DNA of 64,000 nt from Puccinia triticina. Its lineage: Eukaryota > Basidiomycota > Pucciniomycetes > Pucciniales > Pucciniaceae. Numbering within the stretch: the stretch's first letter is position 1; every line of letters starts with the position of its first letter. Under the pieces are notes generated by a model. It saw only the letters and a list, made by a program, of their open reading frames with translations, was not told the origin of the DNA and made no database searches. Below, piece by piece: positions 37,286 to 64,000 of this stretch. The position numbers and the translations under genes are program-made. Where the stretch lies: contig NC_070565.1 in NCBI RefSeq assembly GCF_026914185.1, positions 7,421,536 to 7,485,535 of the forward strand, written 5' to 3'.

Positions 37286-37504
37286 GACCTGGGAGACGAA
37301 GTTGAACGAAAGATCAGTTATATGGAGTGACTCGAGCGATGGCCGGAATATTTTGGCGAAGAGAAGCTGATCGCGGCCAGCCCCGTCATGAGCATATCGC
37401 CGCCTTGATGTAATCTCACAGAAGTCCTCCTTGATTAAAATGGCGTTGTCGGTTTCAGTACGAACAGCGTTGACTTTGCATCGAAGCGCGCGACCGGGTT
37501 GTAA

Positions 37505-37600
37505 CTAGCCTAACACAATCCCCTCGTTCCAGGGGCCGGGGGACCGGCGCGCCGGGGGCGCCTCGCGAAGCGAGCCTCTGGAAGAGGGGCTTGCAACTTA
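37505..37600 (+). repeat. Left terminal inverted repeat with hairpin
   Basis: After the terminal CTAGCCTAACACAA, the arms CCCCTCGTTCCAGGGG and CCTCTGGAAGAGGGG pair around a GC-rich loop that contains its own hairpin (GCCTCGCGAAGCGAGCC-like). Corresponds to 49735-49827 inverted. Confidence 0.85.
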
Positions 37601-38034
37601 AGTGCCCGTCCTGGGGTGAGAGATTTCCCATTTTCGCTGTATTTTGGGTAATATTCACTTCAACCGTGGATGGCGTCTTCATCTGAGCTCCCCCTCGGAT
37701 GAGATGCACATTTCCGAGCAGGCGGGCATCTTGCCTTCCTGCTGGTATTTTTTTTATTAAACATTCTTTAGAAAAATATCACTTTCCTGAGACTTGAAAG
37801 CTGGAGCTCAGCTCGGAGCAGGAAGGAATGGGAATCCACATGGAGCTGTACTCTAGAAGATACAGCCCATCAGTTTTTTTTTTCAGATCATTGACGGCCG
37901 CAATTCATTCCATAATATTTTGCTGTTACGTATAATTATCATCATGTTATATCGGATTGAGTACTTACTTGAGATTGCAGGACACTGCAAGTCCAGTGAG
38001 CTGCTCCCATTTCCTCAACTGACAAGATTGATCG

Positions 38035-40372
38035 ATGGCTACAATAATTCCACCGTCAGCAGTCCCAACCCCACAAAGGATCCTGTCACAAACAGGTGTC
38101 AACATCTACAAGAAGCTATTCAACAAGAGCAGTGAAAAACTCCGTGAACATGTTTCCAAAACTTTGATCGACTTTTACAGTCAGTTTGCAAAGCAGTTGC
38201 AAGTGGAAGCCGTGCTAAACTTGATAGAAGGCCGCAATACCTTTCTCCTGGCTGGAACCGGCTTTGGGAAGTCTCGAATCCCCAAACTTTACTACAAGAT
38301 GATACCCAGTACAACAAAAGCGGTCGTATTGGTTTTGAACTCATTGGATTCGCTAGGCAACAATCAGGTTCTTGAGAAGCAGCAAGCGGGCTTCTCGGCT
38401 ATCAATCTCACCAAGCTTACGTTCAACGCCAAGACTTCTGAGGAGATTCAGCAAGGGCTATATCAATTCGTTTACCTAAGCCCGGAGATCTTCCTCAATA
38501 ACAAGATGTTTGAAAAGTTATATTTCAGCTCGGAATTTCAGAACCGCCTAGCCTTGGTCGTGGTTGACGAGGCTCATATGATCTACATATGGGGCCTGGT
38601 TGAGAGCTCTACAGCTAAGCATATCACTTCAGCGCACTTTTGCCACGAGGACTCCGGCATATTCCGGCCATCATACGAAAAATTAGGCGCACAACTTCTC
38701 TTTTGCAACGACCAGCCAATATTGTTACTTTTGGCGACTTGCCGGCCTGTTGCGGTTGAGGCCATCAAGAAGAGCCTCAAGCTCACCAACAAAAATCTTA
38801 CTACCTTACATGGTGAATTGACTCGACCAGAGATCTGCATGATCCGAGTCCCAATGGAAAAGTCACTGGCTTCATCTCTAGATGTTATCAAATTGTTCCC
38901 GTCGCACAAGGACGTCACGAATGCCGATATGGTTCCAAGCTTGGTCTACAGTGGCTCCCGAAACAGAACTTTGTCCGTTTTGGAAGCCATTGACCGCGCC
39001 CGTGAGACTCCTGGTGGCGCGTTTATCCCAAACAGCCTTTGTGCTCGAAGATTCCACTCGTGTACTGGAGATGAGGATAAAGTCACAACTGTTGAAGACT
39101 TTTCAAAAGGATTCTATCCGGTCATATCTTGCACAATGGCCCTTGGCCTTGGACAAAATTGGAAACGAGTCCAAATGGTTGCTCACATGGGCCGTGGTGA
39201 TCCAGCCTCCATCTGCCAGATGATAGGCAGGTGCGGGAGGGATGGGAAATCTGGCTTGGCAGTCATGTTTGTGGAAAAAACACGGCGAGGTGGCAAAAAT
39301 CGACTTGATCAATTTGTACGAGATGCTCCTCAAAACGACTTGGATCGGATGGACGCAATGGCGATCACACCCCTCTGCCTCCGGGTAGCATACGCAATGG
39401 ATAACAAGTTAGTTACTGCTTTTGGTGTCCTAGTCTTACGCATACCTAACTGTCAGCTACACCTCCAGATATGGCTATGTTCCACTTTGGGCCGACAATC
39501 CAAATTATATCCAGGAAGTTCAACGTGAACACGTTGCTGGAATGTTAATTTGTCAATGTTCAAATTGTGCGCCTGCGGAGGCCATCCAACTCATGGAACA
39601 CCTCAATTTCGCCAGCCAATCAAACTTCAACAGCATTTTGGATGGAACTTTTACGTCAACTAAAGTCTACAATGTGAAGCACAAGTATCCTCAGAAATCT
39701 TCTTCAATAAAGAAGAGGAAATTCACCGAAGCCGATGAATTTGAAATCTCGCAATTCTCTTCTCGGCTAGTTGGCGAGTTGCATCAGCATTACAACACGG
39801 TGATCACATCAGGTGACAATGTGGATGGATCATACCTTTTTGATGAAGAGGAAAGTAAAGCAATACTTTCTTCCTTGGATTATATCAAATCTGCCAAGGA
39901 TCTCCGGCAAGTTATAGGTGGCAACTGCTTTTTGGGACAATGTGACTGGATCTTTGAGTGGATAACCCGATTCAAAGCTTCAGCACCGGCAGCTGGCGAA
40001 ACACTGTCAAAAATTGGGCCGGCTTCTGAGAAGCGTAGGACCGCTGGGATTACTCAAAAACCTAAAAGTATCAATTCTTATCAGGCCCTTGGCCTCGGAG
40101 CAGCGCCACGGCAACCTACCAAGAAGGCTTTGGCGGCAGAGCAAGCGCGGATACAATCACTTGCAAGAAAAGAGGCAAAGCACCAGATGGAAATTGCGGC
40201 CGAGAGAAGGAGAAATCAAGTGGCACAAATAATGATGGACGCAAAAAATGCACAAAGCGAGATGAATAGTAAGTTTGACTATTTACAACCTATATACAAG
40301 TGGAATTCTGCAAGGCTCATGAGCTTCTACATATTTTCTGAGCCAGATTCACCTGATTCTGAACTTTCTTGA
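38035..40372 (+). CDS. RecQ-like DEAH helicase
   Basis: Two exons, 38035-39407 and 39457-40372, separated by a 49-bp intron (GTTAGT..CAG with CTAAC branch); the join keeps the frame and gives 762 aa. Motif I is 'LLAGTGFGKSRIP', Ia 'VLVLNSLDSLGNNQV', II 'VVVDEAHMIYIWG', then 'FRPSYEKLG', III 'LLLLATCRP', V/VI 'ISCTMALGLGQNWKRVQ' and 'QMIGRCGRDGKSGLAVM'. This order is RecQ-type, but the zinc-binding, RQC and HRDC parts of cellular RecQ are not evident. Instead there is a Cys pair 'CQCSNC' and a Lys/Glu-rich coiled-coil tail. A GTAAGT at about 40269 could start another intron, so the extreme C-terminus is provisional. Convergent with the DUF6589-like gene, 3' ends touching. Expected to unwind or remodel element DNA during transposition (inference). 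Confidence 0.85.
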
Positions 40373-40898
40373 GTATCGCTGGGCCCCAATGCTGAAGATT
40401 TATGATGCTCAGAAAATATGTGCTTCTTGAACTTTTTCAGATCTCCATCATTAATAATTTGGGTTTTCAACTTCTTGATACCAAGTCGGTATACATTATC
40501 TACTATTTCTCCCGCGCTGTTTGGTGTTTATTGAGCCAGAAGGTCTAGGTTGTTCCCAAGAAGAGTGAACATCTCCAGGGATCGAGGAGGGAGATTGTTA
40601 TGGTGTGACTGGTGTATAATTTTGGCCCCGCAGTCATGTTTGAGGGATTGGAACATGCGCTGCAACTAAATAAATCAATGCCAATAGCCCGGTTCACGTT
40701 GGACCATTTTATGCTTGCGGCTAAATTCATGGTTGCTGAATGATAAAATTTTAGCATAAAATTGGATTGCTGAAAGATCAGATTTTAGCATAAAATTTTA
40801 AGGGTCTCTTGAACACACAAGTACAGCATCAACCTCAACTCGCGTACGCACAGAACATTGTCTTCAAAACCCCAACACCACCCACTCAACCTTTTGAC

Positions 40899-42564
40899 AT
40901 GGATGATTCAAGCTCTGTAAGTCTCTCTCTCTCTATCTATCTATGTCTGGTTTTTTCTCACAATCCTTTCTCAGACCCCTAATGGCCAGTCCCACCAATC
41001 ACCTCCTGCATCGGGTGTGGTTCAAAAACGAAAACAACGGACAAAGGTTCAGATGCAGGAATATCGTGCATCTCTCAAGAAGGAAAAACTTGAAAAGGAT
41101 CAACAACGCAAACTCTTAAAGCTGCAGAAGCAGCAAGAGAAAGAACAAGCCGAATTGAAAAGGAAACTTTCAGCTCCATCTCAATCTCAACGGTCTAAGC
41201 GTGCGACTCCGTCTCAATCACAATGGTCCTCTAAATCAGCCTCCCAATCACAGCCAGAAGAAGAAGACTGCGGCAAGTCATTTGTTAAGGAGGATTACGA
41301 GAATATCTGTACTTACCTCGAGATTCAAAAGAACTATGACGACCTCTACGGAAGTGGGCATCAGACCTCAGTTGGTACGCACAAGATGACAAAGTCTCAG
41401 GCATTCGAAGTCTTTGCAGTGTGGTTGAACAAACACAATGATCAGCTGCTTCTTAGTGGTCATTGACTCCAACAACGTATGACTTATTACTTCAAGAAGC
41501 AATACCAGCCCGCAAAAGACTTTGAATCTGGGACCGGTGCCGGTATTGAAGAAGAATATGGTCCTCAGACTCTTGCCAAGAAACTAGGACAGATGTGCCC
41601 CTGCTACTACCGACTCGACCAAATCCTAGGCAAAAAACCAAATGTAACTTCAATGCACGAGTACGACCACTCCCAATTAAAAAGCTCCTTACAACAACCC
41701 AATGAAGAAGATAGAAAAAGCGAAGCGGAATCGGAGGAGATAACTTACTCGGGATGGGAGGAATCTCTCCCATAATGCAATCCTCAATCCCAACATTTGG
41801 CAGGTCCTCAAGCTCTGTAACTGGCCGACTGTCAATCAATGGAGTTGGACAAGTCCTTGTCCCATGCTCAAACTGATATGTTGCTGGAGAATCCTGTTGG
41901 CCCTCAAAGTCGGCAACCGAATGACTCTCGTCTGATTGAAGAACTGCCGCCATTGCCCTCCTTGTTGACTAATCCGATTGGATCGGGAACGGTCCCTCCA
42001 AACAACCTGCCAATGGTCCCTCCAAACAACCCGGGATCATCTACATCTACACAGGCAAAAGCTCCAACACCAAACATCTCTTCTGGCCAGCATAGACGTG
42101 TGTCCCGGGGAGCTCTTTCAGACGCCAGTCCCGGTTCTACTCTTTGTCGCAGCCAGTCATCAAGTCCCCAACAATCATTGAAGGGGTCTGGGTCTCATTT
42201 AGCAAATGCCTTTAATGGCTCAACGGAAACTAGATTGCAGATGTTTGAGAAGCAAGTTGCGGCTGATGAAGAGCGCTTCAAGCGTGAAGATACGCGAGAG
42301 ACTGAACAAACCAACCTCGAGAGGGATCGTATCAAACGTGAAGACAAGCGGGAAAAATCACGAGACCGGAAGGACAACCAGCAACATGCCGATCGACTTA
42401 AATGGGAGCGCGAAAAATTTAACCGTGAGGAAAAGTTGGTCACAGATCGAGAGGCAAAAGCTGATAAACCGCGAGACGAAAAGAAGACAATGGTCATGGA
42501 GCTCCTTTGTGAGGGAAAGTCAACAGCAGAGGTTGAAAGTATCATCAATATGATATATGGGTAG
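40899..42564 (+). pseudogene. PIF/Harbinger accessory (DNA-binding) protein gene with stops
   Basis: Exon 1 (40899-40916, 'MDDSSS') and a 58-bp intron (GTAAGT..CAG) join exon 2 from 40975 ('TPNGQSHQSPPAS'). The frame then stays the same to 42564 apart from TGA at 41464, TAA at 41773 and TAA at 41818. Basic N-terminal coil ('MQEYRASLKKEKLEKDQQRK'), a central globular block ('DYENICTYLEIQKNYDDLYG', 'FEVFAVWLNKHNDQLL', 'KLGQMCPCYYRLDQILG') and a C-terminal Arg/Glu coiled coil. This is the layout of the second protein of PIF/Harbinger elements, which binds the termini and helps import the transposase. All three stops are one C-to-T step from a sense codon. Confidence 0.7.
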
Positions 42565-42963
42565 GATCAATCTTGGTCCATCGATATTGCTCCTCTTGGT
42601 CCTTTGATATTGGTACATGATTCAATCTCGCTACATCAATCCTTCTCTTGGTCCTTCAATCTTGTTCCATCACTCAATCTCGCTACAGTTAGATAACATA
42701 GAGAATATGAAATAAATACATAAGGAAAGCTGTCCTATCTTCATCTGATTGATTGATCGATCAAAATTATGTTTAGTTTCATCAGAGCTTTCTTCTTCAT
42801 CTGATTGATTGATTGTTCAGCATTTTGTTTAGTTAGACATCATAGAAAATATAAAATAAATACATGAGAGAAGTTGGCGATATGAATTGGAAGAACTATT
42901 GAGAATAGAAAACCCGAACAATATTGGTTTCATTATGAGAAAAAAAGAAACCACATATGATAG

Positions 42964-45814
42964 CTAAAGAGGCAAAATACCTCGTTCGTAGTTATAAGCT
43001 ACACAATCAGCAGTCAAACGGTCTTGCAAATCCTTTGCAGATGGGTTTGGTTCAGGTGCATCATCGTTGGCCTGGGAGACACCTTGGTCATCTGGGTCAA
43101 GCTCGATCCACTGGTCTCCGAGCTGAGCCAAGACATTGTGAAGTATAATGCAGGTGTACAGCCAAGCCGCAAATTGACGCATGTGGTTTTTAGTATATAG
43201 CTGCAATCGCATCTCGCGTAGTGAGCTCCATCGTGTCTTGAGGATTCCAATTGTGTGTTCGTTGCGCACGCGGGCCTTCGCCAAGCAATAGTTAAACTCT
43301 GTATTGATCTGTTTGTAGGCTTCTGGGGCCTTGTACGCCGGTCGTCAATTCATAAGCTGAATCGGCCAGGAGGTATTGTCCTGAATGTTTGGGAAAGCAG
43401 GAGGACAGCCGCATCGGGTTAGGAAATACATATTACCCCTGCAATCGGAAAAAAACTGTTACATACCTTCATCAAAGAAGTTTGATGGATCATTGTGCAG
43501 CTGCATTTGCTTGTAAACTCGGCTGTCCCCACAAGTACCCAGCCAACCAGTGATGAACGAAGTGATGTACTTGTTGCAGTCGCAGATGATCTGGGCGTTG
43601 ACTGAGTATTGTCGTTTTCGATCGTAGAATACTTTGCCGTGGTAACCTGGCCGCTGAAACAAGGGGATAGTTGTACCGTTGTGGTGCTCCATTTGCGTGA
43701 CAATGCCAAAAGCACATTTCAGATGTATTGGGACAGCATAGATACAGCTATAATTCATTATAAGAGGGGGAAGGTATGTATAATACAAGCAGTGTATGTG
43801 TAAATGGAAAAGATGGATTATTATAGATGGAATGGAGGACTAGGGTGGTTGAGGATAGGTGGTTTTATCACAGATGGAACAGCAGACCAGGATTACATAT
43901 GATGGATGATTTCACCAGGGATTGAACGGAGGAAATGACCAGGTAAGATGGCAGGGAGGTGAAATGATTTTATTAAAAGATTTATAGTAACTTGTTTCAA
44001 CAGGAAAGAAGAAAGGAAGGAACAGGAGGCAGAGGAGGAGAGCCCCAGACCCCCATAATTCTGGACAGGCAAGGGTACTTGCATTCTAGGCAGGTGTTTG
44101 GTCATGGAACCATCTATCAGGAGGCTGTGTTGTTTGGGAGGGGGAGTTAGAAGGTATCTAACACAGGCTGCACAGCATCTTTGGCTGGAGTCTTTGTATT
44201 TGTTTGTTCAGGGAAGATTCTATCAGGAGGCTGTGTTGTTTGGAGGTGGAGTTAGAAAGTATCTATCAGGAGGCTGTGTTGTTTGGAGGTGGAGTTAGAA
44301 GGTATCTATCAGGAGGCTGCTTTGTTTGGAGGTGGAGTTAGAAGGTATCTATCTGAAGGCTGTGTATTTGTTTGTTAGTTTGTATATCATAGATGTTTGG
44401 CTGTGGATTTAAAGTGTATCTAGCACAGCAAAGCTGTGTTGTTTGTATTTGTGGCTGTGTAGAAAGGCTGTGTAGGTGAGAACCTCTGCAGCAGAAATCC
44501 CTCACAAGGAGCTTCCTGCAGCAGAAATCCCTCATCCTCCAACATAAAAGGAGGGCCTCTCCCCACTATAATTTTCTTTTTTCCCCATCAGCCTACAAAG
44601 GTTTGGTCACAAGTGGTTAGTTAGTTTAGTTAGGATCAGCCTATAGAGGTTTGGTCACTGTGGTTAGTTTTAGTTTGTAGCAGCCTAGGAAGGTCTGTTT
44701 ATTGTGGTTATTAGTAGTGGATTAGTGTAGAGAACTGTAGTGTGTGTTAAGAACAGTAGTAGAACCAACAACCAAACAACCAACAACCAACATCCAACCC
44801 ATATATATATATTTACTTTGTAACAGATTATTATAACAACATAGTGTCAGCAATTCAACATCACAAAATTTTACAACATATATCAAACTTTATCGCACCC
44901 ACCACGTTAAACCAAGTTACAAAAGATTCACCAAAACTATTGATGCAAGTGATCTAGGTCAGATAGAGATTACTATACAAAAGTAAGAGCTATCTTTGGA
45001 ATCAGCCACACCATTTAAATATTGATTACAAGACTCTTGGTTATTTGCATAGTACCATCAGAGGGGCAGGTCTTTCAAACCACCCGTCAGTTATAATAGG
45101 CTTTCAACTTATTCACAACTTATCTCCCCCTCAACGGAACTTTCGATTACCACTCATCCATCCCTTTGGAGTCCCTACACCGTCCACAAATCCTTCTTTT
45201 CGCATCACATCCGAGATTTCTGCATGGCAATTGGCATCCGGCCACACAATATATTGGCGTCCAATTGTGATAATCGCCTTGATGACTCTGCGAGTGACTT
45301 TGATAACAGTTCCTCGCCCAACATTCAACGTTTGTGAGAATCGTCCAACAGAGGCTCCATTGCCATTCATGCCAAGTCTCTCCAGAGTAATGGCTAGTTG
45401 ATGGGCTATCGGAAGCTGTGGTCAAACCCCTCCGCAATGAAATACAGGATTTGCACAAATCAGGTCAAGTACATCAATGAATCCCGACTTCGATGTTCTC
45501 GCAGCTTGTCGGAAATCTTTGTTGGACATTGAAAAAAGCCTCTCTAGGTCAAACTCATCTCGAGTTTTGGGAGTTGGTTGCGGTTCGAGATATCGGCTTG
45601 ACAAAGTATACTGAAGGATGTCTTCAAACAAGGTCCGATCACTAAAGAGCAAGTCGTACGCTCGTTGTAAGGAGCTGTTCTGTGGAAACAATAGCTGGGC
45701 ATCAGAGGGGATAGGTTTCCTGTCCAAAAGAGCATCGAGGTCTTCAATATCCAGCCAAACAATTATTAAAAAAAGGTCACGGATGAGAGTTTGACGTTCC
45801 GAGTATCCCCGCAT
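42964..45814 (-). pseudogene. PIF/Harbinger transposase (DDE), split by solo LTR
   Basis: ATG at 45814 ('MRGYSERQTLIRDLFLIIV'), preceded by a putative 5'-leader intron. The frame has one in-frame TGA (45424-45422). Then 'ASVGRFSQTLNVGRGTVI' and 'MRKEGFVDGV' up to 45180, where a solo LTR (43680-45179) enters. It resumes at 43679 with 'TTIPLFQRPGYHGKVFYDRK' and 'DCNKYITSFITGWLG'. An 86-bp intron (43466-43381, GTATGT..CAG) separates 'SNFFDEG' from 'QYLLADSAYELT'. A small frame shift lies near 43340, then 'VRNEHTIGILKTRWSSL', 'LYTCIILHNVLAQLGD' and the stop at 42964. The catalytic set D (VDG), D (ADSAY), E (RNEHT) is retained in sequence, but the gene is disabled by LTR, TGA and shift. Confidence 0.8.
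43680..45179 (+). repeat. Solo LTR, 1500 bp
   Basis: Begins TGTGGTGC and ends CCCTACA, flanked by CCGT on both sides (43676-43679 and 45180-45183). The termini match the LTRs of the 10.6-24.4 kb element in opposite orientation, while the centre matches the LTR at 60161-61569. Inserted exactly in the codons of the transposase VDGTT motif. Contains three to four copies of a ~50-bp unit 'tatcaggaggctgtgttgttt' (44112-44345). Confidence 0.9.
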
Positions 45815-46315
45815 TCCTAAACAAAGAGGATTGGTTAGTGAGACAAGGAAGAAAAGAAGTGATGGGGATGAGTACCTACCAGGATGATGGTGTGTTGATG
45901 TCTTGGAGAGGGTTATGTAGGTTTGGCGGTGGTGATGGCTTTGGCGGTGATGGCTTTCACTATCAGTTGCGTTTCCATCTGCTGATGGCACATGTGGTGA
46001 TAAAATTTTATGCATAAAATTTTATGCACGTTTTTTTTACACAGCTGGTTGTAACTAAAATTTTGCTGGTTGCGGCCCAACGTGAACCGGGCTAATGTGT
46101 GGCTGCCTTTGCAGAACCTATCAAGATGAACATACCAAGAATATATTAACTGAAAAGACATTGCGCAGGCGGTCAATCTGGGTGCCCATGCCGTTATTGT
46201 TATAAAAAAATTTGATCCAGTAATTCTGGATTTCAAGCCAAAAGTCCTTGGCCACAAAGTGATCTTCTTGGCCAGTTGGAGATATGAGTAGGCTGTGTTT
46301 CATATAGATCCTCAA

Positions 46316-46338
46316 GGGGGGGGGGGGGGGGGGGGGGG
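46316..46338. repeat. Poly-G run (G23)
   Basis: An uninterrupted run of 23 G within the DUF6589-like coding region; on the coding strand it would read as polyproline. Such runs are slippage-prone and coincide with a frame change in the gene. Confidence 0.9.
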
Positions 46339-47739
46339 CAGTATCACTGTGAGCATCAAAACCATCTGGGGGAGATAGGATGAGTAGTTTGTTATTCCCT
46401 TCAGCGCTTGGGCCATGATGGACCATTTCTTCCAAATCAACAGTAAGCAACCAATGTCTCCAGCTTTCATCAATTGCTTAGCTTCAACAACCGTAGAGAA
46501 ATCGTGCAGCAAAACTAAGGTATTGCTTAGCTTTGGGCTAGCCTTTGGGTGTGCCGCCACATTCCGAGCTCGAGTAGAAAAATAGTTTTCATAGCAGACC
46601 TCCACAATTTGGTTCCAACGCTCAGTGGGAATTTTTGTTTGGGTGTGATTGGTATCGTTGGTATTAGTTTTCATGATGACTCTTAATGAATAAAAAACAA
46701 GTGAGGTCAGTCATCCGCTGAACTAGATAGTCAGTCAGCAAAGGATCAACTTGCCTCAGACAATAATAAACCACAGCCTCAAAAACCGCTCCATCTGATT
46801 GATCATCAAACTGAAATCCTTCTTTTGTATAGCTTTCTCGGAGGGGAATCCCAGGGATTCCAAGTGCTGCCAGGCACCACAGTTATTCATGTCATTTGGG
46901 TTGCCAAAGTGATGACTGAAGATGTTGGAGGCAATGTTCCACAGGGTATGCGAAGCCCCAAGCTGGAAATGAACATTGTCCATTTGATTTTGAGGAACCG
47001 GACTTGGTAGTCGCTGGGATCGCAAGCAGTTGAAGTTTTGCACAGTCCCCAAATCTCCATCCATTGGTTGCAAGCGACCAAAGAAATCCTCTTTTGAGAG
47101 GCCTGTTTGGTTGATAATAGACTGGAAAACCTGGCCAATCCCTTCGGCGGAGTTGTCAGAAGCGTCCATTAGCTTCAACATCAGAAGATCCGGGCGCTTG
47201 GCGCTGATTGGCTCCAGCGGAGAAGGCCTGGTGGCGATTGCGGATTTTGGATCTTCAGGAATTGCTAGGTACTCGTAAAGAACCTTGGCAATCTGACTCT
47301 TATAAACAGATACCTTGTATCTTTGCTCTGATGCCGACGGAAGAAACATGTAAGGTTCTATTACCAAATCTTCAACAGACCGCATGGCCTCATGGAAAAA
47401 GCTTAATTCCATGTTGGGCAAATCCAACTTCGCCAGGAGTTCCTTGTTAGGCAGATGAACATAGCCCCAGGTACCGCACCAAGTGTGGGAGCGGTTGCCA
47501 ATAGACTGCTGATGGATTCGTTCCTATTCGTTCCTCCATATCTATGTTGTCTATGCAAATAGTTGGCGCCAGCGGTACACCTGGTACTGTTCGCATGGCT
47601 GACCTGATAGCCTTTTCGCCTTTGTTTGATAGGGTTTTTAAGGCCGACATGGCTGTGCTTCTTGATGACGCAAGTCCAAGGTAGTTTAAATATTTGTGCA
47701 CCCGTTCTGAAACTCCACAAGCAAAGTGTCAGAATAAGA

Positions 47740-47965
47740 GCCTGTCCGCTCACTGTCCTCTTCATGTCCTGTCTGGCCATGTGGCCTTTATCCTGTCCTG
47801 TCTGGCCATTTGGCCTCTATCCTGTCCTGTCTGGCCATGTGGCCTTTATTCCTGTCCTGTCCGACCATGTGGTCTTCCATCCCTCCTGTGCTTTCTGGCC
47901 ATGTGGCCTTTTTCCTGTTCCGTCTTACCAAGTGGTCCTCCTGTTCTGTCTTGTTGTCATGTCAT
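47740..47965. repeat. Tandem repeat, unit about 30-36 bp ('ctgtctggccatgtggcc')
   Basis: About six imperfect copies of 'cctgtcctgtctggccatgtggcctttat'. Lies inside the span of the DUF6589-like gene, between its N-terminal part (48.98-48.3 kb) and the 47.7-kb block, so it either replaced or expanded part of the gene. Confidence 0.8.
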
Positions 47966-48999
47966 TGTTTCTAGGCCCCCCTTTGGATCTTGCTGGGGGG
48001 CTCTCTAGTTGTGTGTTCTAAGTCCGCTCCTCGGACATGTAATCAAGTCATCGAGTCAGAGCAACAACAAACAAGACCCACAGTGCCCTAGTCCTCAGAC
48101 CCAGCTCCTCGTTCAACCCCTCCTCCTGGCCTCTCAATCTTTCCTTCATCAAGTTAAATCTTAACACAAAGAACCGGACTGAGTTATTGAGCTGAAGGGC
48201 GTTGTGAGGCCTGTTCCGGGTAAAAGCAAGCATTGCACAAATTTTAGTAGATACCTAACACCGTACAAAAGAGAAAATCAATCAGTCAGATGTACATGCA
48301 AACATGATTTCCCAAACCACCTACTCTATGCGCCCGCTGTTAAAAGCGATCCTGTGCATGGGCCACTTGGGTGTAAGAGATCCCGGATAGAACATCAGGG
48401 GAAGCAAGGTCATTGGTGATAACTTCAGCAGAAGCAGGTACACCACTCTCCTCCTGCTGATCAGCATTCTCGGGAGGTTGGGCATTCAGCATGCCCATCA
48501 TTAGATCAAACACAAAAGGCATGTCTAGCTCGGTGAGCACACCATCATGTATGGCCTGTGTTTCAGCGGTGAGGAAACCCTGCTTAACCGTTGTTGAACT
48601 GTGAAAACGACCAGCGGGGTAGTTCCCAGTAGGTGGGATCTGAGTGGCCGTGATGTTGATGGCCTGAGGAACAAGGACAGGAATCACTAAAAGGGACATA
48701 ATGGGAGCCCAACAGGAAATGAGTGTACCTCTTCCAGAATAAAATCATACCAAGCCTGCCGCCCTGAATCCGTCCTATTGATTTCATGGCGTAAAGATGC
48801 AATGAGACTCACAGTGGACTCTATTCCACTGGGAGCCGCCCTCGTCGACGCAAGTAGGCTATATCAGAGTTGCTACTTGTGAGGAAGCGTTGGATGAATT
48901 GCTTTGGAGTCAACACCGTAGGCGGAGCTCGCAATTCTTGGCAGATGTTGAGAACTTTCTGGTCAAAACTGATTTGCTCCATTTTAAATTTAGAGTGAT

Positions 49000-49730
49000 T
49001 ATTGAAGTTATTGGGAATTTATAAGCAAAATATTTATCTCAAAGTATTTCGGAACTAATGGACGGACTAATGGACGGAAGAGCCTGGGGAATTGCTGGAT
49101 TGAGCAAGAGACCCTTGCTTTATACTCATCAAATTGCCCAATCCGATCCCTTGGATTGGCTAAGCTCCATAGGCAGTGGCACCTAGAAGCGAGATGTCCC
49201 GGTATGTGCATAGACTGTTTTGGAGAGATGCACATGGATCCATCCTTTTCCAAAAGGTTCTGAAGGCCTTGAGACAGTGATTAAGCTGCTATCTAGTTCA
49301 AAGAGGACCCAATGACCTCCGGTGAATGTGATTTGGTTTGATAGGGCTATCTCGGATCCAGTTCCCAGAGGTCCCAATGCCTTTATGACTGTGATGAGGC
49401 CCAGAAAGGCCATGATATGGAAATAGGAGCCGTACAGGTAGTGTACAGCTATTTATGCAAGGATGGAATGCATCCGACTGGCGGGCTTCATACAGTGCAA
49501 GCCCTGAACAATCTGCCGGTCACTCGTCTCAAAAATGTAAAACTTCAAAGGGCCATGGCCACCAGATGGTTTGCTGAGTTTTATCCATGCTTGGGCATGG
49601 GAAGGGCCGGATGTAGGCCTTTCAATTGGTGTAACAGGCCTTGGGAAATTCCCTCTCCAAGATAGGGAACAAGTGGAGGCAAATTCCTCCCACCTAAATT
49701 CGAAATCCGCTCACGCCAAAAGTCAGGGAT
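49000..49730. other. Right subterminal non-coding region of the RecQ/DUF6589 element
   Basis: Presumed promoter side of the DUF6589-like gene. Both strands have short open frames without recognisable motifs. Nothing else supported. Confidence 0.5.
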
Positions 49731-49734
49731 ACCC

Positions 49735-49827
49735 CACAAGCCCCTCTTTCAGAGGCTCGCTCCGCGAGAGGCGCCCGGCGGTGTTTCACCCGCCTCCCTC
49801 TGAAACGAGGGGCTTGTGTTAAGCTAG
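49735..49827 (-). repeat. Right terminal inverted repeat with hairpin
   Basis: Inverted counterpart of 37505-37600. The arms CCCCTCTTTCAGAGG and CCTCTGAAACGAGGGG are separated by a GC-rich centre with its own GCTCGCTCCGCGAGAGGCGCC hairpin. Ends ...TTGTGTTAAGCTAG directly before the GGGTTGTAA duplication. Confidence 0.85.
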
Positions 49828-49957
49828 GGGTTGTAAAGAGCGCTAACTTAGTTCGGGGGATAGCCGCTTCCTTCCTTGTCTTGGCTGAATTCTTTCCACA
49901 GGCCATATCACCGGGGGCAAAATCGGGTCATGATGACATTACATGTTGCAATGTCCT

Positions 49958-63649: not shown

Positions 63650-64000
63650 GGGTTAGGGTTAGGGTTAGGGTTAGGGTTAGGGTTAGGGTTAGGGTTAGGG
63701 TTAGGGTTAGGGTTAGGGTTAGGGTTAGGGTTAGGGTTAGGGTTAGGGTTAGGGTTAGGGTTAGGGTTAGGGTTAGGGTTAGGGTTAGGGTTAGGGTTAG
63801 GGTTAGGGTTAGGGTTAGGGTTAGGGTTAGGGTTAGGGTTAGGGTTAGGGTTAGGGTTAGGGTTAGGGTTAGGGTTAGGGTTAGGGTTAGGGTTAGGGTT
63901 AGGGTTAGGGTTAGGGTTAGGGTTAGGGTTAGGGTTAGGGTTAGGGTTAGGGTTAGGGTTAGGGTTAGGGTTAGGGTTAGGGTTAGGGTTAGGGTTAGGT
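63650..64000 (+). repeat. Telomere, (TTAGGG)n
   Basis: About 58 perfect TTAGGG units to the end of the window, with the G-rich strand running 5' to 3' towards the right end, as at a right-hand chromosome terminus. Confidence 0.99.

What the first reader, a model, noticed from the sequence alone, without database searches (positions are those of the whole stretch)
37505..49827. A 12.3-kb TIR transposon whose genes are a RecQ-like helicase and a DUF6589-like protein
Seen directly: matching inverted ends (CTAGCYTAACACAA[GT]CCCCTCG), a perfect 9-bp flanking repeat GGGTTGTAA, and exactly two native genes between them, convergent and touching at their 3' ends. Family knowledge: RecQ helicases and DUF6589 proteins are both found in many copies in rust genomes. 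Inference: the two are not separate host families but the cargo of one DNA transposon, with DUF6589 the candidate transposase or nuclease (acidic CIDNID and MDGDL motifs) and RecQ the replication or repair helper. This is my best candidate for an undescribed system.
Basis: partly seen in the sequence, partly recalled or inferred. Interest (0 to 1): 0.92.

Follow-up and report, generated by a model that had tools for sequence, protein, structure and literature searches.

The report
Helicase-carrying jumping gene of rusts
This stretch is a real jumping gene of a rust fungus that carries two genes, a DNA-unwinding enzyme and a previously unnamed protein that looks like the cutting-and-pasting enzyme, and it probably belongs to a known but little-studied class (AcademH) whose copies are easily mistaken for ordinary fungal genes.

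The parts
37496..37504 (.). left copy of the 9-bp target-site duplication GGGTTGTAA
   Evidence: single copy (one base different) at the related empty site C7:2614096-2614265
37505..37593 (+). left terminal inverted repeat, imperfect, about 89 bp, with an internal palindrome
38035..40372 (+). RecQ-type helicase gene: exon 1 38035-39407, intron 39408-39456, then open frame to 40372 (splice sites by eye); DEAH box and GRCGRDG motif
   Evidence: Pfam DEAD 1.5e-9 and Helicase_C 8.4e-8; NCBIfam recQ_fam 1.2e-28, below its cut-off; WRN chains best among solved structures, 8.4e-13
40327..48982 (-). DUF6589 gene, candidate DDE transposase, in exon pieces; limits approximate; interrupted by two later insertions and broken in this copy
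   Evidence: PF20231 at 46756-47427 (4.5e-26), 46312-46674 (6.2e-14), 46121-46450 (1.5e-13); acidic motifs CIDNID 47540-47557, MDGDL 47050-47064, WLE 46232-46240; limits read against L009
40686..46093 (.). later nested PIF/Harbinger-type insertion with 3-bp duplication, not part of the element
   Evidence: inverted ends, gap against L009 with 3-bp overlap, DDE_Tnp_4 in two pieces (the second just under its cut-off)
47727..48166 (.). later nested TG...CA insertion, probably a solo LTR, 5-bp duplication CAAAG, not part of the element
   Evidence: gap against L009 with 5-bp overlap
49737..49827 (-). right terminal inverted repeat
49828..49836 (.). right copy of the target-site duplication

Best explanation
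A copy of a terminal-inverted-repeat DNA transposon, most likely of the AcademH lineage, in a Puccinia genome (probably P. triticina). The element encodes a DUF6589 protein that is its DDE transposase (RNase H fold with a helical insertion, as in P element and Hermes) and a RecQ-type helicase. Proposed mechanism: the transposase binds the ~90-bp ends, cuts them and joins them to target DNA with a 9-bp stagger, and host repair fills the gaps to give the 9-bp duplication; the helicase helps expose or process the palindromic ends or the strand-transfer product. The same machinery moves deleted derivatives (785 bp and about 136-160 bp) in trans. Shown: insertion with 9-bp duplication, paralogous empty sites, gene pairing and co-divergence, near-identical non-autonomous derivatives, predicted transposase fold and conserved acids. 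Inferred: catalysis, cut-and-paste versus copying, mobilisation in trans by this family's proteins, and the helicase step. This window copy is decayed.
Confidence: 0.82

Rival explanations
1. A separate, undescribed superfamily: DUF6589 is a DDE transposase unrelated to the Academ transposase, and RecQ was acquired independently.
For: No paper in the held library mentions DUF6589; Academ identity could not be tested by sequence; the predicted fold is nearest to P element and Hermes, neither of which is Academ; AcademH is said to be low-copy in fungi, unlike here.
Against: Duplication length, helicase type and fungal host all coincide with what is said of AcademH / fungal Academ.
Confidence: 0.13
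2. KolobokH: a fungal Kolobok lineage with a RecQ helicase.
For: KolobokH encodes a RecQ helicase and is found only in fungi; one red-alga Kolobok has RecQ on the complementary strand, as here (PMC9587614).
Against: Kolobok duplicates TTAA (some KolobokP families 3-5 bp); here 29 of 29 exact duplications tabulated are different 9-bp sequences. KolobokH itself carries RecQ downstream of the transposase domain.
Confidence: 0.02
3. A MuDR/Mutator-like element (9-bp duplications) that captured a RecQ gene.
Against: No MULE or Mutator Pfam model matched; RecQ is paired and co-diverging at about a hundred loci, not one capture.
Confidence: 0.04
4. Host gene families (RecQ read as an effector or repair family, or telomere-linked helicases) that only happen to lie together.
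For: A rust paper treats RecQ helicases as an enriched effector class (PMC9370660); telomere-linked RecQ genes are known in fungi (PMC4522978); this copy is about 14 kb from a telomere array; loci near contig ends are somewhat more than expected, RecQ 5 against 2.0 and DUF6589 8 against 3.0.
Against: About 2 chance pairings expected within 10 kb against 80 of 92 seen, all convergent; 63 of 68 RecQ loci on contigs of known length lie more than 100 kb from an end; ends, duplications and empty sites show insertion.
Confidence: 0.01

Closest known systems
AcademH (Academ superfamily lineage; Kojima 2020, Mobile DNA 11:15, not held, known here only through passages of PMC10045372 and PMC10799480; fungal Academ through PMC6416283)
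   Same: Helicase beside a DDD/E-type transposase; 9-bp duplication (AcademH 9 or 10); fungal; helicase hits DEAD and recQ_fam; copies annotated as host genes.
   Different: Transposase kinship not compared; described as low-copy in fungi, here over a hundred loci; the DUF6589 link, the convergent gene layout and the end consensus were not in the passages I could read.
KolobokH
   Same: RecQ helicase plus DDE transposase in fungi.
   Different: Kolobok has TTAA duplications, and KolobokH has RecQ downstream of the transposase domain; here 9-bp duplications and a separate opposite-strand gene.
P element and hAT (Hermes) transposases
   Same: Predicted fold: RNase H core with a helical insertion and a late Glu.
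   Different: About 10% identity in the structural alignment, no Pfam transposase model matched, different duplication length (8 bp for both, recalled), no helicase (recalled).
Telomere-linked RecQ helicases / Y' elements
   Same: RecQ-type helicase in many copies.
   Different: Not confined to chromosome ends, and part of an inserted element with a transposase-like gene.

Membership tests
AcademH | target-site duplication of 9 or 10 bp | tested here: met
   20 of 22 exact 9-bp duplications in this family, 9 of 20 divergent pairs exact; definition from PMC10045372
AcademH | encodes a helicase rather than the nuclease of AcademX | tested here: met
   DEAD and Helicase_C above cut-off, recQ_fam best NCBIfam model; Pfam scans of the main ORFs showed no nuclease model apart from the nested DDE_Tnp_4
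AcademH | occurs in fungi, Basidiomycota included | tested here: met
   named DUF6589 relatives listed are Puccinia and Melampsora; distribution from PMC10799480
AcademH | Academ-type DDE transposase by sequence relationship | not testable with these tools
   no Academ reference sequence, and the 2020 paper is not held; only a DDE fold and acidic set could be shown
DUF6589 (PF20231) | match above the gathering score | tested here: met
   91.9 bits against a cut-off of 27
RecQ-family helicases | superfamily 2 helicase core (DEAD and Helicase_C above cut-off) | tested here: met
   38.3 against 26 bits and 32.9 against 23.5 bits
RecQ-family helicases | match to the RecQ subfamily model above its curated cut-off | tested here: inconclusive
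   recQ_fam is the best model but scores 100.2 against 219.8 bits; best solved relatives are WRN, RecQ and RECQ5; query was exon 1 only
DDE transposases | RNase H fold with conserved D, D, E | tested here: met
   first 16 VIA rows are DDE enzymes; in P0035, D301 conserved in 68 of 71 rows, D304 in 71 of 72, D465 in 67 of 70, E709 in 57 of 57; predicted structure only, catalysis untested
KolobokH | TTAA target duplication | tested here: not met
   29 different 9-bp duplications
MuDR/Mutator | match to a MULE or Mutator Pfam model | tested here: not met
   no such match for DUF6589 pieces or full-length relatives
Telomere-linked RecQ helicases | confinement to subtelomeres | tested here: not met
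   5 of 68 RecQ loci on the 15 contigs of known length lie within 100 kb of an end, 2.0 expected

The most novel reading that the evidence does not exclude
DUF6589 is not the Academ transposase but founds its own DDE transposase superfamily, nearest in fold to P element and hAT, which has carried an obligate, co-evolving RecQ helicase partner through all its divergence in rust fungi, so that the helicase is a required part of the transposition machinery.
Probability: 0.14. Interest if true: 0.75.

Novelty: new member of a known kind. Interest (0 to 1): 0.5.

Why it matters
It gives a likely function (DDE transposase) to a Pfam family of unknown function and shows that most of the RecQ 'gene family' found here in a rust genome is transposon content: 105 of 118 RecQ loci are linked to DUF6589. 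At least one comparative paper reads rust RecQ expansion as effectors or DNA-repair adaptation (PMC9370660, passages); that reading should be revisited. The tight coupling of a helicase with a DDE transposase over deep divergence makes the question of why such an element needs a helicase testable.

Tried and rejected
Telomere-linked RecQ: rejected, copies are spread along chromosomes, with only a slight excess near ends. KolobokH: rejected by duplication length. MULE: no profile match. A MITE unrelated to the genes: rejected, the MITEs read are deletion derivatives. Viral relatives of DUF6589: none in phage records; in viral contigs 41 pattern matches, none confirmed. Sequence search of DUF6589 against solved structures: one chance-level hit, E 1.7. 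Search for longer or fused DUF6589 proteins: one hit, no fusion domain. Search from a Melampsora member: 73 proteins, the named ones all from rusts, so non-rust relatives were not reached. First model by Foldseek: no hit at E below 0.001, Hermes best at 6e-3. In the pdb_via lists no Academ structure appears; an absence there excludes nothing. Literature: no paper with DUF6589 in the held library; the listings of searches showed no title or abstract describing this element in rusts. Of papers I saw passages only: PMC4522978, PMC12210899, PMC9370660, PMC10799480, PMC10045372, PMC8290104 (reference list only), PMC9587614 and PMC6416283; Kojima 2020 was not seen. Recalled, from no call: catalytic residue numbers of Hermes and P element, duplication lengths of hAT and P, the IS256 membership of ISCth4, and the Puccinia 18-chromosome karyotype.

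Full report
What is there. The window is the last 64 kb of a contig in an 18-contig, 122.8-Mb genome (C8 is 7,485,535 bases long) and ends in a TTAGGG array. A DUF6589 relative 96% identical over 65% of a query from this genome is Puccinia triticina PTTG_28874, so the host is probably P. triticina (inference). At 37505-49827 there is an element with inverted ends and the exact 9-bp duplication GGGTTGTAA.

Native content. Aligned with its nearest copy (L009, C1:8149741-8156193, 6,453 bp, duplication ACGAATCTG), the window copy is about 97-98% identical in three blocks, separated by two insertions: 40686-46093 with a 3-bp duplication, encoding DDE_Tnp_4 (PIF/Harbinger type), and 47727-48166 with a 5-bp duplication, TG...CA. 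What remains is two convergent genes with overlapping 3' ends: RecQ on + (38035-40372) and DUF6589 on -. The DUF6589 gene of this copy is broken; I describe it only.

It has moved. The end pattern has 66 exact matches in the genome and none for the reversed control. Of 22 insertions in the 21 loci read (20 fetched plus the window, all chosen for two exact ends), 20 have exact 9-bp duplications and 2 have one mismatch. Twelve copies of exactly 785 bp, 779-785 of 785 bases identical to one of them, consist of the element's left 414 and right 380 bp at about 97%; four shorter copies of 136-160 bp are further deletions. Joining the flanks of seven insertions (7 of 29 assembled, picked as looking repetitive) and searching the genome gave uninterrupted paralogous sites for four: the window element (C7:2614096-2614265, 92%, one place), the RecQ/DUF6589 elements L035 (2 places) and L042 (33 places spanning the junction), and the MITE L014 (4 places); L013, L016 and L031 gave none in the list, which scored 40 of 204 candidates (four examples aligned).

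It is one of many. A RecQ query found 92 merged loci and a DUF6589 query 128; 84 of 92 RecQ loci had a DUF6589 locus within 30 kb, all 84 convergent; within 10 kb it is 80, where about 2 are expected by chance. The first RecQ search scored only 92 of 347 candidates; a second RecQ query (122 of 210 scored) raised the count to 105 of 118 RecQ loci paired, all 105 convergent, and 107 of 128 DUF6589 loci paired, 105 of them convergent. Thirteen RecQ and 21 DUF6589 loci stay unpaired within 30 kb. In 20 divergent pairs read in full (20 of the 74 pairs within 4.5 kb, taken in contig-name order), every one shows at least one end related to CTAACTTAAC..AAGTCCCTC, 13 show candidate ends on both sides, 7 on one side only, and 9 have exact 9-bp duplications; reversed sequence gave 1 match against 57. 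The relaxed end pattern was drawn partly from these loci, so the duplications and empty sites are the independent evidence. Across 22 loci RecQ identity (46-96%) and DUF6589 identity (36-98%) correlate at 0.93, with 0 of 5000 permutations as high. The 29 exact duplications tabulated are all different; G is commoner at the first and C at the last position, otherwise no motif.

What RecQ is. recQ_fam is the best NCBIfam model (1.2e-28, but 100 bits against a cut-off of 220; exon 1 only) and WRN the best solved relative (8.4e-13). Motifs of a helicase are visible (DEAH, GRCGRDG).

How it probably works. The transposase pairs and cuts the ends and joins them with a 9-bp stagger; the helicase acts on the palindromic ends or on the joint product. 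The first half is supported by anatomy and predicted fold, the helicase step is inference; co-divergence argues that it is needed. Cut-and-paste versus copying was not resolved.

Against what is known. A 2019 survey says that most fungal Academ copies carry recognisable domains such as DEAD/DEAH and recQ_fam and are frequently annotated as host genes (PMC6416283, passages). AcademH makes 9 or 10-bp duplications (PMC10045372, passages) and occurs, as low-copy elements, in Basidiomycota, Ascomycota and Mucoromycota (PMC10799480, passages). The original AcademH paper is not held. Three features I could define match; the fourth, kinship of the transposase, could not be tested; the high copy number here differs. 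I therefore file this as most likely AcademH, not proven. The rust transposon survey (PMC12210899, passages) mentions Academ, in what I saw, only as a recently identified type; its supplements were not open to me. A rust comparative paper calls RecQ an enriched effector class (PMC9370660, passages); these data say that most RecQ loci found in this genome are transposon genes.

Verdict.

Noticed in passing
window 40686-46093: PIF/Harbinger-type element (ends AGCCCGGTTCACGTTGG, 3-bp duplication) nested in the DUF6589 gene, itself apparently carrying a further insertion with 43-bp direct repeats around 44219-44365.
   Followed up: partly
window 47727-48166: 440-bp TG...CA insertion with duplication CAAAG, probably a solo LTR.
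   Followed up: partly
L047:805-7900 and L039:1522-8489: RecQ/DUF6589 elements, and in L047 a 753-bp derivative, inserted within or next to end sequences of other members, hinting at preference for their own ends.
   Followed up: partly
L015:300-1377: A 154-bp and an 862-bp derivative about 60 bp apart, the latter containing an extra end sequence.
   Followed up: no
window 46316-46338: A run of 23 G in the DUF6589 gene; the second copy has a run of about 10 at the same place.
   Followed up: no
window 63650-64000: Contig ends in a TTAGGG telomere array, so the element lies about 14 kb from a chromosome end.
   Followed up: yes
785-bp derivatives, e.g. L011:300-1084: The left and right parts overlap by 9 bp at the deletion joint, suggesting that a microhomology event made the founder.
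   Followed up: no
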